Shown piece after piece: positions 17,906-42,658 of a stretch of 64,000 bases of DNA. Made by a program: the position numbers and the translations under genes. Numbering within the stretch: position 1 is the first letter of the stretch; each line of letters opens with the position of its first letter. Source of the stretch: Cinnamomum chago (Eukaryota > Streptophyta > Magnoliopsida > Laurales > Lauraceae); contig CP142451.1 in the NCBI GenBank assembly GCA_038049695.1, positions 129,724,001 through 129,788,000 of the forward strand, read 5' to 3'. The notes under the pieces were generated by a model, which did no database searches, was not told the origin of the DNA, and was given only the letters and a program-made list of their open reading frames with translations.

Positions 17906-19238
17906 GGGAGGCGGTCCTGTAAGGACCGTCCTTACCCTATTTCGTAAGGACTAATCCAGTGCGTCCATTCTTCCTTCACATCCAACGTTCTAAATAGCCC
18001 TTATATAAGATACGAGAGGGAGAGGGAAACGAAAACTGTAGCAAAAGAAAGAAAGAGTCGAACGCGCCCAAGTCGAACGGAAGGGAGGAGTGACTTTGCC
18101 ATCTCGATCGCCCGGAGCCAAATCGTGCGATCGATCCCTCTCTCCCGGCGTCTCGTCATCTCCTCTCTGGTACCTCTCCTTTTCAGCGTCCCATTTCTCT
18201 CTACTCTCTCGCGACGATCCGGCGGCACGGCAAATCCCCAAATCTGGCCGATGTTCTTCTCTCTCTCTAGATCATCTCACGCTCTCGCTAGGCGTCGCAT
18301 CTCACCCTCCCCTCTCGGTCTCTAATGCGGCTCCTCTCCGGAACCTCGGGCATCTCTTCCTAATTTCTCGCCTGCCAAACCAGGTATACGTTGCCCTCTT
18401 TGGGGAATGATGTTTGAAACTGAGATTGGGCTCATCTCATCCAATATCCCCTGTTTTTTTTTTTTTGGTTGGCAGTTCCCTAGTTGATATTTTCATTAGT
18501 ATGTTTTTTTTCCCCACAAGTTGAGACACTGATGTTATGAACCGAGTGCTATCTAAATGCTCCCCTGATCACAGCCGCAAACAATGGCTTCTCCTCTGAT
18601 GATACGAATTGAGTGCTATCTGTACATCTGTAAGTACAAAGTCCAGAGCAGATGAACACAGATAAAACATTTCCCCATCTGGCATTCACAGCGGGGAATG
18701 GACAATGTTATAATGTTGGTGTTTTTTTGTTGGGGTTTAGATGAAATGGGTTCTTTTCATTGTCATCATCTAATGGTTTTCGGTGCTAAGGACATGGAGA
18801 TAAGGGGTTTTTGGGGTGGTTCCTCTTGCCTAGCTAGATGAAGATTGAGAAATGTAATGTGGGTGTTTTCTTGCAGGGGTTTAGATGAAATGGTTTTTTC
18901 GGATTCTCATCATATGATGGTTTTGGTGTTTGCATGGAAAGAAAGGGCTATGGGCTGATTCCTCTTGCCTTGTTAGATGAAGAATGAGAAAGGTAAGAAG
19001 GTGGGTGTTAATTCAGGGCTGATTCCTCTTACCTCTCTCCATCTGTGAATGCCAGATGAGTATATATGTGGACTTCCAGAAGCCCCATCCGACATTCTAA
19101 CTTGTTCATTCCCAATCTGTGATCTAGAAAGGTAAGTAGGATTGAATTTTTTTCTGAATGTTTGCATTGGTTTCCTTCATGTAATACATTTATTTATTTA
19201 TTTATGTCTACTTGAATTTTATTTTCCCTTTTGTTCAG

Positions 19239-19690
19239 AGTGTTATCTTCTAATACAATCCGTTCTGAGCGTACTCTAAAATGCCGATGTGGAGTAGGAG
19301 ACATGAAATTTTATACTCCTTGTACGCAGTTGAATCCAAATAGAAAATTTTGGAAATGCCCGAATTGGAATGTAAGGGTGTTTAGGCTACCTCATAGATC
19401 AATATACATTTTCAAGGTTTCAAATCTAGCATTAACTATTTTTTTGTGTGTAAATCTTTATGCAGAATGAAAATGGCTGTAGTGCGTGCCTTTAGAAAGA
19501 TGAAGTAGCAAATTGGCAGCAACTTGAAGCTAATTCATCGATTTGTGAACGAGAAAACTGGAGAGAAGAAAAGAGCAATTTGATAAAAGTCGTTGAAAAG
19601 TTAGAGAGTTCTGTGCATGTTTTTATTGAAGTAGAGAAAGCTATTATAGTCACATGTTGTATAATAGTTTTCCTGTTTAGCTGCGCATGA
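19239..19690 (+). pseudogene. GRF-type zinc-finger / membrane-anchor protein, broken by a stop codon
   Basis: Exon 19239-19371 encodes a GRF zinc finger (TLKCRCG...TPCTQLNPNRKFWKCP), a C-x-C-G...C-P motif of a small nucleic-acid-binding domain. An exon from 19466 follows in frame: NGCSACL, then TAG at 19493-19495 where family members have Trp in FLWKDE, then KDEVANWQQLEAN, a charged helical stretch and a C-terminal hydrophobic segment (AIIVTCCIIVFLF) ending at TGA 19688-19690. So the layout is GRF finger, coiled coil, transmembrane tail, with one nonsense change. It lies inside the long-TIR element 17906-22536. A related, intact-looking copy is at 38898-39483. Confidence 0.75.
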
Positions 19691-21120
19691 AGTGAGATGA
19701 ACAACATGTCTTCTGTAAATGAACATTCACTTTCATAGAAGATGGAACTGTTTTCCGCTTTGTGTCTTTCCATTTGGTTATGCTACTTGTGATAGTGTGA
19801 TGTGAATGCAAGTATATTTTAAGGTGTAAATGATTTAAATGTAAGCAAGTTGGATAAAAACAATGCATATTCCATTTGCAATTTTAGAGTTTGAACATTG
19901 AATTAAGGAAGTTTGTAAAAGAGGGTGGGCCAATCACAGTTGGCTAATAAGAAACTATCAAACCCTGATATGGGTTCTACTGTAAGGAAAGTACCTCCCG
20001 CAAAGTGAAACCGAGCGAATAACTAGGTAATGAAGACACAAATGATACAACTACAGCAACTAATGTGCACCAATTTATCCTCGAAGAGTGCAAGAGATAT
20101 CAACACAACTCCCAACCCAATCTACTGGTGTACTTCACCACTCTATTTACTCTTTCAAATGGCTGCCTCCATCCATTGACGGTGTTGCTTTGGATGAGGA
20201 TTTTCCATCCCCCCACACTTAAACTGTGTGTAAAAGGAAAATGCCCATTGTGCTCCATGCCCCAACTACTTGTCTGTATAGACGTTGTGCTGCTTTATGC
20301 TGGCATCATCTACAATGATCCAGATCAATCATCTGACCGAGAGCATCACAGATTAGAAGACCAATTTAACACAAGTGAAGTGTAACATAGAGGTCCATGC
20401 ACACCAGGAAATCCTAGCAATCCTATATTCCGCAGGTGCTTTCTCCGGCACACGCACAACGTGCTTCTACATAGTGTGGACCATTCAAATGCACATCTTG
20501 ACTCACTATATGTAGTTACACCTGCTAATAATGCACCAACAGCCACATGGTCCAAATCCAACAAAAGCCAACCAATTAAAACATGGAAAATAATGCATAG
20601 CTGAAAGCCATACAAGGAGACATTTATCTTTTTTTTTCTTTTTTTCGCCTTCATGAACCTGAGTTTGTTACAGAAACAAAACCAGGGTAGTCCATTTTGC
20701 CTTAGTTACAGATTCATGCTTATTAAGAAATTAGTAGTCCATTGCTAGGTTAGCATGCACTTCAGCTGGAATTTTGCCACCCTATTCCACGTTATCATGG
20801 AAATGGCTACTGACTCTTACAAGCCTTGAAATGCATTAGCTGACTGTAAGAAAAGGTCTCAGTGCTCAAATCCAGATCATCTGCCATCACAAATCTTTGA
20901 CCACAATACTAGATTTCTGTAGCTGAAACAAAGCAGCATCTCCAATTAAGATGGATTTTATGATGTGTGAATCAACAAAGACTGCATAGGACATCAAGAA
21001 ATGCCGCTTGTAACATGGTGTCCATAATCAGACATCAAATTGATCTTAAACTGGGCATCAAATTCATAATAAAATTAAATACTAAATTTCACAAAAGCAA
21101 CTTGGCCATTCAACATCAAA

Positions 21121-21249
21121 TATAAACCAAATGCCATGTCCATGGGTTGACATTTGAACCGGACACATCTAAAGAGCTTCCTTCAACAGGTGTATCGGAT
21201 GGGGCTTCTGGCATTCTTGGCATGTCCGCATGTAGATCAACAGTCCCCC
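21121..21249 (-). other. Coding-like fragment inside the long-TIR element, not identified
   Basis: Read on the minus strand after a possible acceptor (TTTTTAG), an open frame gives GTVDLHADMPRMPEAPSDTP followed by VEGSSLDVSGSNVNPWTWH and a stop. Its composition looks like a real terminal exon rather than random intergenic DNA, so it may be another captured gene piece. I do not recognise the family. Confidence 0.3.
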
Positions 21250-40556: not shown

Positions 40557-42247
40557 AACAAAACACCCACATCCACTGTTGGAATTATAGCTGGCGCACT
40601 TGCTTTCCAAAAATGAATTTCATATGCACAGACAAGTGAAACAAGTAAAAAAAAAAAAAATTTGCACTAGAGACTACCTAGACTTTTTTAGACCATCGAG
40701 TCTGTACCCATTTCAAACTTCGTTGGACAACTAATGTGAGCTTAGCTCAAGTAACTGGGAAGAAAGTGACATCAATAGTAACCCAATAACATTGAAAATT
40801 ACGTTTGGTGTGAAGAAAGTTCTTTCCTATTTCTGGAGTTTTTGAAATCTAAACCAACAAAAGAGCACTCTCAGCCTTAAGCTATTTTTATCCCAATTTA
40901 ATCCAGAAAAGCACCAAAACCCACTGTTGTTTAGATTCTGTAGATTTGAGGAAACCAAGTAAGTTCTGATGAAGAAGAGGACCATGGTGTGGTCCTCAAA
41001 TGGTGCATATTTTTTCTGAAGGAGCACACATGTAGGCCAATGGAGTCATGTGCTTAGATTCTACATGACCATGCTACTGTATACTCAAGACTGTTAAAGT
41101 GCTCCTCCTTTTTGGCATCACCATAGATACAGGTGGGAGAGTATGCACCTGTGCTCATTGACTCATAGATATCAATGTATATCTGACGGGTTATTTTGCT
41201 AAGCAATCTTTATAACCATGAGCAATCATCAATAATCACAGCAGCAGAAAAATAAAGAAATCCTAAATAATCATGACCAATCATCAATGACAACAATACT
41301 AAAAGAAGGAAATCCTAAATAACATTTAAAAGAAGAAACAAGTTAGGTTCACAACAGTCAAGTCCTGCATTTGAAGTTACATAGAAACTAGTCCCGACTA
41401 CCAAAACCAAGGAATGGGAATTCGAACATAATAGCAACAGGAGGGGTGCCGTGGATAGCACACCGGATCAGAAAAAAAAAATTGTCTGTTTTTTTTTTTT
41501 CTTGAATAGAAACCTAAACCTGTCCAAACACAGACAACCCTCAATCCAAGGCACTGCGAAACCCCATATCAAATGTAACTGGCAGAGAAAAAAACAGAGG
41601 AAAAAAAAAACAGAGAAAGAAGGAGGAAAATGCATACATCGAAGAGAAGGGCGTGCCTGGCGATGGAAATGGGAGAATCGATCGCAGGAGACAAATCGTG
41701 CCTTCCGGACAGCGGATCGCAGCAGAGGGTGCGTCGCTTCAAACCTCGCAGGAGAAAAATGGGTTTCAGGTCAGGGCGAAATGGAAAGGGAGAGGAGATC
41801 GAGAAATGGGGGAAGGGTTCGTTCGCTGGAGAGAAGCCTGAGAAGAGGAGCTCCTCGGCGGAGACGATCGCTCTGCTCAGAGGATGAAGATAGTGTCTGG
41901 CCGAAAAGAGAGAGCAGAGAGAGCGAAAGTGAAATGGGCGAATGGAGAGATAGCAGATTCAGGGTAAAATCGTTCGCCGTTCTCGCCTGAGGAGAGGATC
42001 GTATCGCTAGTCGATCGCGCGTTCGCTGCCAGAACGGAGAGGGAACAGATGGAGAGGAAATGGGGAATGGAGAGAGAGAGAGGAGCCCTGCTCTTTGGTT
42101 TCGTTTTGATCAAATGAAGTCAGATGTAGAGCGGGGAAACCAAATTTCCTTGGGCGGGGTCCACTTGATTAGATGAAAATTGGCTGAAAAATTTCAAACT
42201 CACTTCACTTCCCCCACGTGCTGAGCATGAGCTGAGGAGAGGGATCC

Positions 42248-42281
42248 TATATATATATATATATATATATATATATATATA
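42248..42281. repeat. (TA)n tract between two TIR elements
   Basis: About 17 TA units separating the right end of the 7.1-kb element from the left end of the 42282-42658 MITE. Confidence 0.95.
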
Positions 42282-42658
42282 GGGGTTAGCTCTCCTAAGC
42301 TCAAGCTTAGGATAAGGTAAGCTCAAGTGCGTGGTGGGGCCCACCTGGGGACCCAAATGGAGATGGGGGTGGGGGGGATTTCAAGGACTCCCTTGGATCT
42401 TCCTCTCTACAAAAAATCAGCCCCAAATGCGATTTATATCATCTTCATATGGGCCCAAAAGTTTAATGGTCAACGGTCCATTTAGATTGATACATAGTCA
42501 ATCCAACGGTCCAATAAATTCGGATCTGACCGAAAGTTGGTGGACATGTGTAATTTAGGGAAGTCATGTGTTTGGTCCATTTGGATGGACCAAAGGTGGG
42601 CCCCACAAGCATGAGCTTACGAAATTTTTTTCCTAAGCTTGAGCTTAGGAGAGCTTTG
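42282..42658. mobile_element. MITE with hairpin ends, inserted in (TA)n
   Basis: Left end GGGGTTAGCTCTCCTAAGCT and right end CTTAGGAGAGCTTTG are inverted; AAGCTCAAGCTT in the left end is itself a palindrome. (TA)n borders both sides. Ends resemble the MITE at 10469-10705 and, more distantly, the 7.1-kb element (CTCTCCTCAGCTCATG...GTGGGG). It is about 330 bp upstream of the TTLL12-like start codon. Confidence 0.8.

What the first reader, a model, noticed from the sequence alone, without database searches (positions are those of the whole stretch)
17906..42658. Family of TIR elements inserted in (TA)n microsatellites, both large ones carrying a GRF-finger/membrane-anchor gene
Three elements (4.6 kb, 7.1 kb, 0.38 kb) are bordered on both sides by (TA)n tracts, and the two large ones each contain a gene for a GRF zinc finger, coiled coil and C-terminal membrane segment. 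Insertion into TA microsatellites is known for some plant elements (the rice MITE Micron is an example). A shared membrane-anchored nucleic-acid-binding cargo in such elements is, to my knowledge, not a described system; it may be a functional accessory gene or a captured gene that spread.
Basis: partly seen in the sequence, partly recalled or inferred. Interest (0 to 1): 0.72.

Follow-up and report, generated by a model that had tools for sequence, protein, structure and literature searches.

The report
Two-gene plant transposons carrying GRF finger
In this plant genome the odd zinc-finger gene seen inside two transposons turns out to be a regular second gene of jumping elements that also carry their own transposase, so it is probably a helper for jumping rather than random cargo; the two copies in the window are crippled leftovers.

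Summary
The three (TA)n-flanked elements are real. E1 (17906-22536) and E2 (35148-42247) each hold a GRF zinc finger + coiled coil + C-terminal hydrophobic segment gene; E2's GRF passes Pfam's cut-off, E1's is broken by a stop and scores below it. E3 is a 378-bp MITE-like element sharing a TA tract with E2. E1 and E2 share no appreciable DNA similarity and show no transposase.

In the 1.06-Gb plant genome around them, GRF genes are numerous and linked to Mutator-like (MULE) transposases: 47 of 277 scored GRF hits lie within 15 kb of one of 150 scored MULE hits (about 0.6 expected per list), 44 of 47 convergent. One relative is complete: 8.8 kb, 721-bp TIRs 99% identical, 9-bp TSD, open GRF and FAR1/MULE genes. 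TA-adjacent ends have GRF inward, rarely outward (26 v 1 of 97; 11 v 0 of 72; 6 v 0 of 53), though most ends have none scored. GRF parts show dN/dS about 0.2-0.3. TA-targeting and two-gene MULEs are known; a tail-anchored GRF second gene I did not find in print. E1 and E2 are non-autonomous derivatives. Function is inferred; one genome; no hAT or random-locus control ran.

The parts
17871..17905 (.). (TA)n tract, left flank of E1
17906..22536 (.). E1: 4.6-kb TIR element, TIRs about 722 bp, 99.2% identical; ends GGGAGGCGGTCC..; no transposase similarity found
19246..19371 (+). E1 GRF exon 1 (GRF domain below Pfam cut-off, 14 bits); 72 E1-type TA ends in the genome, 11 with an E1-type GRF inward, two of these being E1's own ends
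19466..19690 (+). E1 GRF exon 2: in-frame TAG at 19493-19495, then coiled-coil/hydrophobic tail frame; pseudogene
   Evidence: and reading
22537..22569 (.). (TA)n tract, right flank of E1
35135..35147 (.). short (TA)n tract, left flank of E2
35148..42247 (.). E2: 7.1-kb TIR element, TIRs about 784 bp (94.8%) plus inner 208 bp (95.2%); left boundary uncertain by about 2 bp; no transposase similarity found (best E 0.8)
37518..37880 (+). RING-H2 open frame (PF13639, 44.6 bits) inside E2; looks like a captured host gene fragment (Pack-MULE character)
38901..39188 (-). E2 GRF gene exon 2: end of the GRF finger, coiled coil, C-terminal hydrophobic segment
39319..39426 (-). E2 GRF gene exon 1 (PF06839); start codon not evident
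39429..40557 (.). six 188-bp tandem repeats; related arrays (about 66-75%) in 15 of the 20 fetched 10-kb GRF loci, mostly downstream of GRF
42248..42281 (.). (TA)n tract shared by E2 and E3 (stacked elements)
42282..42659 (.). E3: 378-bp MITE-like element; 86% over its full length to a copy next to a GRF element in L036; bases 7-53 85% like the end of the autonomous L042 element
42660..42759 (.). (TA)50 tract, right flank of E3

Best explanation
The GRF gene is the second gene of autonomous, two-gene Mutator-like transposons (MULEs). Shown: in linked pairs a GRF zinc finger + coiled coil + C-terminal hydrophobic segment gene lies near one end and reads inward; a FAR1/MULE-type (or MuDR-type) transposase lies towards the other end and reads inward; the two converge, as mudrA/mudrB do in MuDR (convergence in MuDR recalled). 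Several such families sit in TA microsatellites, one complete element shows a 9-bp TSD, and elements stack end to end through TA tracts. E1 and E2 are non-autonomous derivatives: no transposase found, E1's GRF broken, E2 rearranged and holding a RING-H2 fragment. Inferred: the GRF protein binds single-stranded or forked DNA at transposition intermediates, pairs through its coiled coil, is tail-anchored in the nuclear envelope/ER, and aids excision repair or integration, doing the job that MURB does in MuDR. I rate the accessory-gene identity at about 0.9 and the specific ssDNA/membrane mechanism at about 0.3.
For: GRF-MULE linkage: 37 of 128 PF06839 hits within 15 kb of a scored MULE hit (random mean 0.56, max 4 in 2000), 36 of 37 convergent; 10 of 150 E1-type GRF hits, 8 of 10 convergent at 2.9-3.6 kb (random mean 0.65, max 4 in 500). 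12 of 20 fetched 10-kb GRF loci have transposase similarity, 12 of 12 on the opposite strand downstream (8 of the 12 supplied the queries). Pfam found MULE, FAR1 or SWIM domains over cut-off in 9 of 10 ORFs, from 8 loci, that I picked for looking like transposase. Class C: 11 of 11 distinct loci have a MuDR-like transposase opposite GRF. Element ends: family A 97 ends, GRF inward 26 / outward 1, MULE inward 28 / outward 1; E1-type 72 ends, E1-type GRF 11 / 0; E2-type 53 ends, GRF 6 / 0. Complete autonomous element L042+L051: TIR 721 bp at 99.2%, TSD TATATATCT, 718-aa FAR1+MULE ORF. Selection: dN/dS 0.24 / 0.31 / 0.19 over the GRF part of class A in two subgroups / all. The same GRF-CC-hydrophobic tail order is seen in four GRF classes (for class B in 5 of 8 distinct loci). 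Nearest solved structure is the NEIL3 GRF (7jl5, E 0.0049); GRF fingers of NEIL3 bind ss/forked DNA (PMC9266487, passages).
Against: One genome only. Hit lists are capped (150 scored of 531, 450 and 3015 candidates). 71 of 97 family A ends, 61 of 72 E1-type and 47 of 53 E2-type ends have no scored GRF inward. With the PF06839 list 0 of 72 E1-type ends have GRF or MULE inward; E2-type ends have one MULE hit, 10 kb inward. Two of the ten E1-type links are divergent at 10-12 kb. Linked copies are related, so pairs are not independent. The coiled-coil and tail parts show dN/dS 0.56-0.97. No non-MULE transposon control was obtained (hAT search did not complete) and no random-locus control. No expression, localisation or activity data. 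Homology to mudrB was not tested.
Confidence: 0.75

Rival explanations
1. Captured passenger: an early MULE picked up a host GRF gene once and it has hitch-hiked since, without a role in transposition (ordinary Pack-MULE behaviour).
For: E2 also holds a RING-H2 fragment; E1's copy is broken; E2 against its nearest copies gives dN/dS 0.95-1.66 on few changes; most E1- and E2-type ends have no scored GRF; MULEs are known gene capturers (PMC6446971, passages).
Against: Convergent layout in 44 of 47 linked pairs; presence with both FAR1-type and MuDR-type transposases; purifying selection on the GRF part of class A; 15 of 18 class A genes keep both frames open (one of them, L037, has a changed splice acceptor).
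Confidence: 0.12
2. Anti-silencing factor: the GRF protein protects the element from host silencing (the role of vanC in the Arabidopsis Hiun MULE) rather than aiding the cut-and-paste reaction.
For: An anti-silencing accessory gene in a MULE is known (PMC6446971 passage); GRF is a nucleic-acid binding fold.
Against: A C-terminal membrane segment is an odd fit for a chromatin factor; no expression or methylation data here.
Confidence: 0.25
3. Targeting factor: the GRF finger recognises single-stranded or cruciform (TA)n DNA and is what directs insertion into TA microsatellites.
For: GRF fingers bind ss/forked DNA; 11 of 20 fetched GRF loci have, by eye, a TA tract and MULE-like end upstream; 11 of 15 TA-adjacent ends folded have z of -2.2 or lower.
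Against: Class C MULEs carry GRF but sit at AT-rich, mostly non-microsatellite sites, and the one end folded has no hairpin; 4 of 15 TA-adjacent ends do not fold better than shuffles; AutoMuTAnT targets TA with a single ORF (PMC4486113).
Confidence: 0.12

Closest known systems
MuTAnT / AutoMuTAnT (Medicago truncatula)
   Same: MULE in (TA)n microsatellites, foldback ends, 9-nt TSD outside perfect TA, Jittery-like transposase; its end mask GGGGTTTGCTAGAACA resembles E3's GGGGTTAGCTCTCC (PMC4486113, text parts 1-2 of 4)
   Different: AutoMuTAnT carries a single ORF; no GRF gene is described in the parts read
SaTar elements and AgS-MULE/ArS-MULE (guayule, rice; includes Micron)
   Same: Non-autonomous MULEs targeted to microsatellites, stacked in non-nested arrays of unrelated elements, with low-copy autonomous MULE partners (PMC5907723, section 11 part 1 of 2, section 16 part 1 of 2 and passages)
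   Different: No GRF or other second gene described in the sections and passages read ('zinc finger' and 'captur' have 0 occurrences in the main text)
MuDR (mudrA + mudrB, maize)
   Same: Two genes on opposite strands, transposase plus a second gene (PMC6446971 and PMC9168764 sections/passages; that they converge is recalled)
   Different: The mudrB protein is called of unknown function and no GRF finger is named in the passages read; relation to the GRF gene untested
Hvu_Abermu (barley MULE with ORFR)
   Same: MULE with an opposite-strand extra ORF, Ka/Ks below 1 (PMC9168764, sections 16 and 23)
   Different: ORFRs of distant species show no similarity to each other; 'GRF' has 0 occurrences in that paper's main text
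GRF zinc fingers of NEIL3 and ZCCHC4
   Same: Same zinc-finger family by sequence, weakly (7jl5 E 0.0049; 6uca E 0.29)
   Different: Those are domains of host enzymes; a tail anchor in them is not known to me

Membership tests
Mutator-like elements (MULE) | Long terminal inverted repeats | tested here: met
   E1 722 bp 99.2%, E2 784 bp 94.8%; relative L042+L051 721 bp 99.2%. E3 has only short TIRs
Mutator-like elements (MULE) | 8-11 bp target site duplication | tested here: inconclusive
   Not readable for E1, E2, E3 inside TA tracts; met for one relative, L042+L051 (9 bp TATATATCT, read by me)
Mutator-like elements (MULE) | MULE-type transposase in autonomous members | tested here: met
   PF10551, PF03101 and PF04434 over cut-off in GRF-linked ORFs; none found in E1 and E2 themselves
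TA-microsatellite-targeted MULEs (MuTAnT/TAFT/SaTar type) | Insertion in (TA)n tracts | tested here: met
   E1, E2, E3 flanks; 97, 53 and 72 TA-adjacent ends for three families, reversed-pattern controls 0; the patterns themselves include TA, so ends outside TA were not counted
TA-microsatellite-targeted MULEs (MuTAnT/TAFT/SaTar type) | Stacking of unrelated elements through shared microsatellites | tested here: met
   E2-E3 share 42248-42281; an E2-type and an E1-type end match face each other 22 bp apart at C8:24022338/24022361 (the bases between were not read); arrays at L033, L036, L043 (by eye)
TA-microsatellite-targeted MULEs (MuTAnT/TAFT/SaTar type) | TIR sequence similarity to the named families | not tested
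MuDR-like two-gene MULE | Second gene convergent with the transposase between TIRs | tested here: met
   44 of 47 linked pairs convergent; whole element L042+L051
MuDR-like two-gene MULE | Second gene homologous to mudrB | not tested
   No mudrB sequence was at hand
GRF zinc finger (PF06839) | Score above the family cut-off (25.9 bits) | tested here: met
   E2 39.2 bits; E1 only 14 bits, not met
Pack-MULE | Non-autonomous MULE carrying host gene fragments | tested here: inconclusive
   E2 has a RING-H2 exon and no transposase found; the host donor gene was not sought

The most novel reading that the evidence does not exclude
The GRF/coiled-coil/tail-anchor protein is an old, shared transposition accessory factor of several plant MULE lineages, a mudrB-like helper that holds single-stranded or forked transposition intermediates at the nuclear envelope. 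If so, many 'uncharacterised GRF-type zinc finger' plant genes (At4g04775-like, a name recalled) are transposon genes.
Probability: 0.35. Interest if true: 0.8.

Novelty: new variant of a known kind. Interest (0 to 1): 0.6.

Why it matters
The role of the second gene in two-gene MULEs has been open since mudrB. A second gene with a recognisable, biochemically tractable domain (ss/forked-DNA-binding GRF finger) and a predicted tail anchor, present with two kinds of MULE transposase, makes that question testable. It also offers a transposon origin for a family of unexplained plant GRF genes, which matters for gene annotation. TA-microsatellite MULEs gain a full two-gene autonomous partner.

Tried and rejected
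Looked for TIRs within 10 kb around 20 GRF loci and found no clear TA-flanked pair spanning GRF; first read as evidence against the finding, then explained by elements longer than the stretch allowed for (8.8 kb complete; about 11.5 kb estimated for family A). A guess that the GRF hits with 98-aa frames were E2's autonomous partners was not borne out by the one fetched: L052 is of the other sub-class. E2's own autonomous partner was not identified. The first E1-end test gave 0 of 72 with a PF06839-list GRF or MULE hit inward; it was repeated with an E1-type GRF query. E2-type ends were not tested against the E1-type list. Literature: one search found one paper holding both 'GRF zinc finger' and 'transposase' (PMC7729826, a wheat QTL paper, listing only seen). 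The listings (capped at 10-25 rows each) showed no report of a GRF gene in a MULE; the library holds open-licence papers only. Class D loci (L015, L020, L021) were examined at 3 kb only; no MULE end was recognised there. In class B, a second exon with the hydrophobic tail was not found in 3 of 8 distinct loci.

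
Full report
Observation. E1 (17906-22536), E2 (35148-42247) and E3 (42282-42659) are TIR elements each flanked by (TA)n. E1's arms are 99.2% identical over 722 bp and E2's 94.8% over 784 bp plus an inner 208 bp at 95.2%. E1 and E2 share no appreciable DNA similarity (longest match 32 bp, 81%), nor do E2 and E3 beyond 36 bp at 81%. E2's GRF gene has two exons and passes Pfam's cut-off at 39.2 bits; E1's scores 14 bits and has an in-frame stop. E2 also holds a RING-H2 open frame (44.6 bits) and six 188-bp repeats. 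Neither shows similarity to the nine transposase queries (best E 0.8).

Genome. The window is C1:129724001-129788000 of a plant genome of 1.06 Gb in 14 contigs ('plant' is my reading, no name is given). PF06839 gives 128 hits over the cut-off (150 scored of 531 candidates). A query with E1's GRF exon gives another 150 (of 450 candidates), overlapping the first list once; the union is 277.

What carries the GRF genes. Twelve of 20 have transposase similarity and in all 12 it lies downstream on the opposite strand (eight of the twelve supplied the queries, four were found by them). Pfam found MULE, FAR1 or SWIM domains over cut-off in 9 of 10 ORFs, from 8 loci, that I chose for looking like transposase; DBD_Tnp_Mut in L048 is just below its cut-off (23.9 of 25); the tenth ORF (L045) matched Transposase_32 below its cut-off. 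In 11 of 20 loci, by eye, a TA tract followed by a MULE-like end lies upstream of GRF. Positions alone give the strongest test: 37 of 128 PF06839 hits lie within 15 kb of one of 150 scored MULE hits (of 3015 candidates), against 0.56 expected and a maximum of 4 in 2000 random placements; 36 of 37 are convergent. For E1-type GRF it is 10 of 150, 8 convergent at 2.9-3.6 kb and 2 divergent at 10-12 kb, against 0.65 expected and a maximum of 4 in 500. Together 47 of 277, 44 convergent; 45 of 150 MULE hits have a GRF within 15 kb. The 25 top-scoring MULE hits have none of the first list nearby. The length of C12 was guessed in these simulations (71 Mb, 41 Mb), which matters little. Related copies are not independent events.

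Element ends. The end pattern of family A including TA has 97 matches at up to 3 mismatches, reversed control 0: within 12 kb, GRF inward for 26, outward 1; MULE inward for 28, outward 1; both for 15, either for 39. In 17 of the 26, GRF lies 1.65-3.65 kb in and reads inward; in 12 of the 13 ends where the transposase reads inward the MULE domain lies 2.5-2.8 kb in. With the E1-type GRF list the same 97 ends give 0 inward and 0 outward, so the two GRF types keep to their own families. E2's end: 53 matches, control 0, GRF inward 6 (five elements, one being E2 itself), outward 0, MULE inward 1, outward 0. E1's end: 72 matches, control 0; with the PF06839 list 0 inward, with the E1-type list 11 inward (nine elements, one being E1 itself) and 0 outward. 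Four E1-type ends lie 6.9 kb from GRF and two 2.1 kb, which suggests a larger relative of about 9 kb; no scored MULE hit falls inside any E1-type end. An E2-type and an E1-type end match face each other 22 bp apart at C8:24022338/24022361 (the bases between were not read), as in SaTar arrays.

A complete autonomous relative. L042+L051 (about C1:113563885-113572651) has TIRs of 721 bp at 99.2%, a 9-bp duplication TATATATCT that I read, an open GRF gene with a GT-AG intron, and a 718-aa ORF with FAR1 and MULE domains on the other strand. Its end resembles E3's (85% over E3 bases 7-53), so E3 may be a miniature of that group. L052 shows another open GRF gene, about 6 kb from a MULE hit with a 754-aa open frame. 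Class C elements (L006-L013, L016, L018, L027; two of these also fetched as L048 and L050) share one end sequence with a few changes and in 11 of 11 have a MuDR-like transposase opposite GRF. By eye they sit at AT-rich sites without long TA tracts; L006 has a short TA run. L048 has TIRs of about 190 bp at 93% and, like L050, one stop inside the transposase frame.

The protein. Four classes (A, B, C, D) have the order GRF finger, coiled-coil-like segment, C-terminal hydrophobic segment. Class A: 15 of 18 genes keep both exons open (L044, L049 and L026 do not; L037 has a changed splice acceptor). Class B: the tail exon was found in 5 of 8 distinct loci (L031, L035, L038, L045, L023; not L032, L039, L017). 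The best 19-residue hydropathy window near the C-terminus runs in class A from 1.37 (E2) to 2.21, in D and C 2.68 and 2.01, in B 2.5-2.9; four class A members (E2, L026, L040, L041) fall below the usual 1.6 mark (recalled). Coiled coils were judged by eye. The nearest solved structure is NEIL3's GRF.

Selection. Nei-Gojobori estimates for class A: whole gene 0.49 (9 genes) and 0.56 (5 genes) within subgroups; between subgroups mean dN 0.394 and dS 1.171; GRF part 0.24, 0.31 and 0.19 (all 14); coiled coil 0.56-0.71; tail 0.86-0.97. E2 against L025, L026 and L029: 1.66, 1.39 and 0.95 on very few changes; against L030 dS is 0. So the finger is constrained between lineages, the tail hardly in sequence though it stays hydrophobic, and E2's own recent group shows no constraint.

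Mechanism. Established: GRF fingers of NEIL3 bind ss and forked DNA (PMC9266487 passages); MULEs can carry second genes, mudrB being apparently required for integration (PMC6446971 passages). Inferred: a MURB-like helper acting on single-stranded or forked intermediates at a membrane. Of 15 TA-adjacent ends folded, 11 fold clearly better than mononucleotide shuffles (z -2.2 or lower) and 4 do not (E2 right end, L033, L037, L034); the class C end does not (RNA parameters). A role for GRF in targeting is therefore possible but not needed, since class C carries GRF without clear TA targeting.

Known and new. TA-targeting MULEs (Micron, TAFT, MuTAnT, SaTar) and stacking are known. Two-gene MULEs are known. 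A GRF tail-anchored second gene linked to both FAR1-type and MuDR-type transposases was not found in my searches, within an open-licence library and capped listings. I therefore call it a new variant of a known kind.

Noticed in passing
window 37518-37880: RING-H2 (ATL-like, name recalled) open frame inside E2, probably a captured host gene fragment.
   Followed up: partly
window 39429-40557: 188-bp x 6 tandem array; related arrays at about 66-75% occur in 15 of 20 fetched 10-kb GRF loci, mostly downstream of GRF, so it looks like an internal satellite of these transposons.
   Followed up: yes
window about 10463-10715: A further small element with E3-like ends (CTCTCCTAAGCTGCAGCTTAG..), beside an AT-rich flank.
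   Followed up: no
window 23229-23352: Near-perfect 60-bp inverted repeat with a 4-bp spacer, about 0.7 kb right of E1.
   Followed up: no
window 16413-17243 and 32582-33442: Two similar alpha/beta-hydrolase-like open frames on the minus strand, likely paralogues, either side of E1 (similarity by eye).
   Followed up: no
window 1157-1308, 25203-25436, 30386-30755, 45204-45866: Tandem duplications of 79, 124, 186 and 349 bp units.
   Followed up: no
L048 2625-2627 and L050 2625-2627: Both class C copies share one stop at the same place between two transposase open frames.
   Followed up: no
G000 C3:105514230, C4:1192286, C4:81208013, C5:32197378, C7:63072033, C8:24006106, C9:66119305, C11:35454766: GRF hits of equal score (31.8 bits, 98-aa frames) each paired with a long open MULE frame (743-754 aa): a young, possibly active family.
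   Followed up: partly
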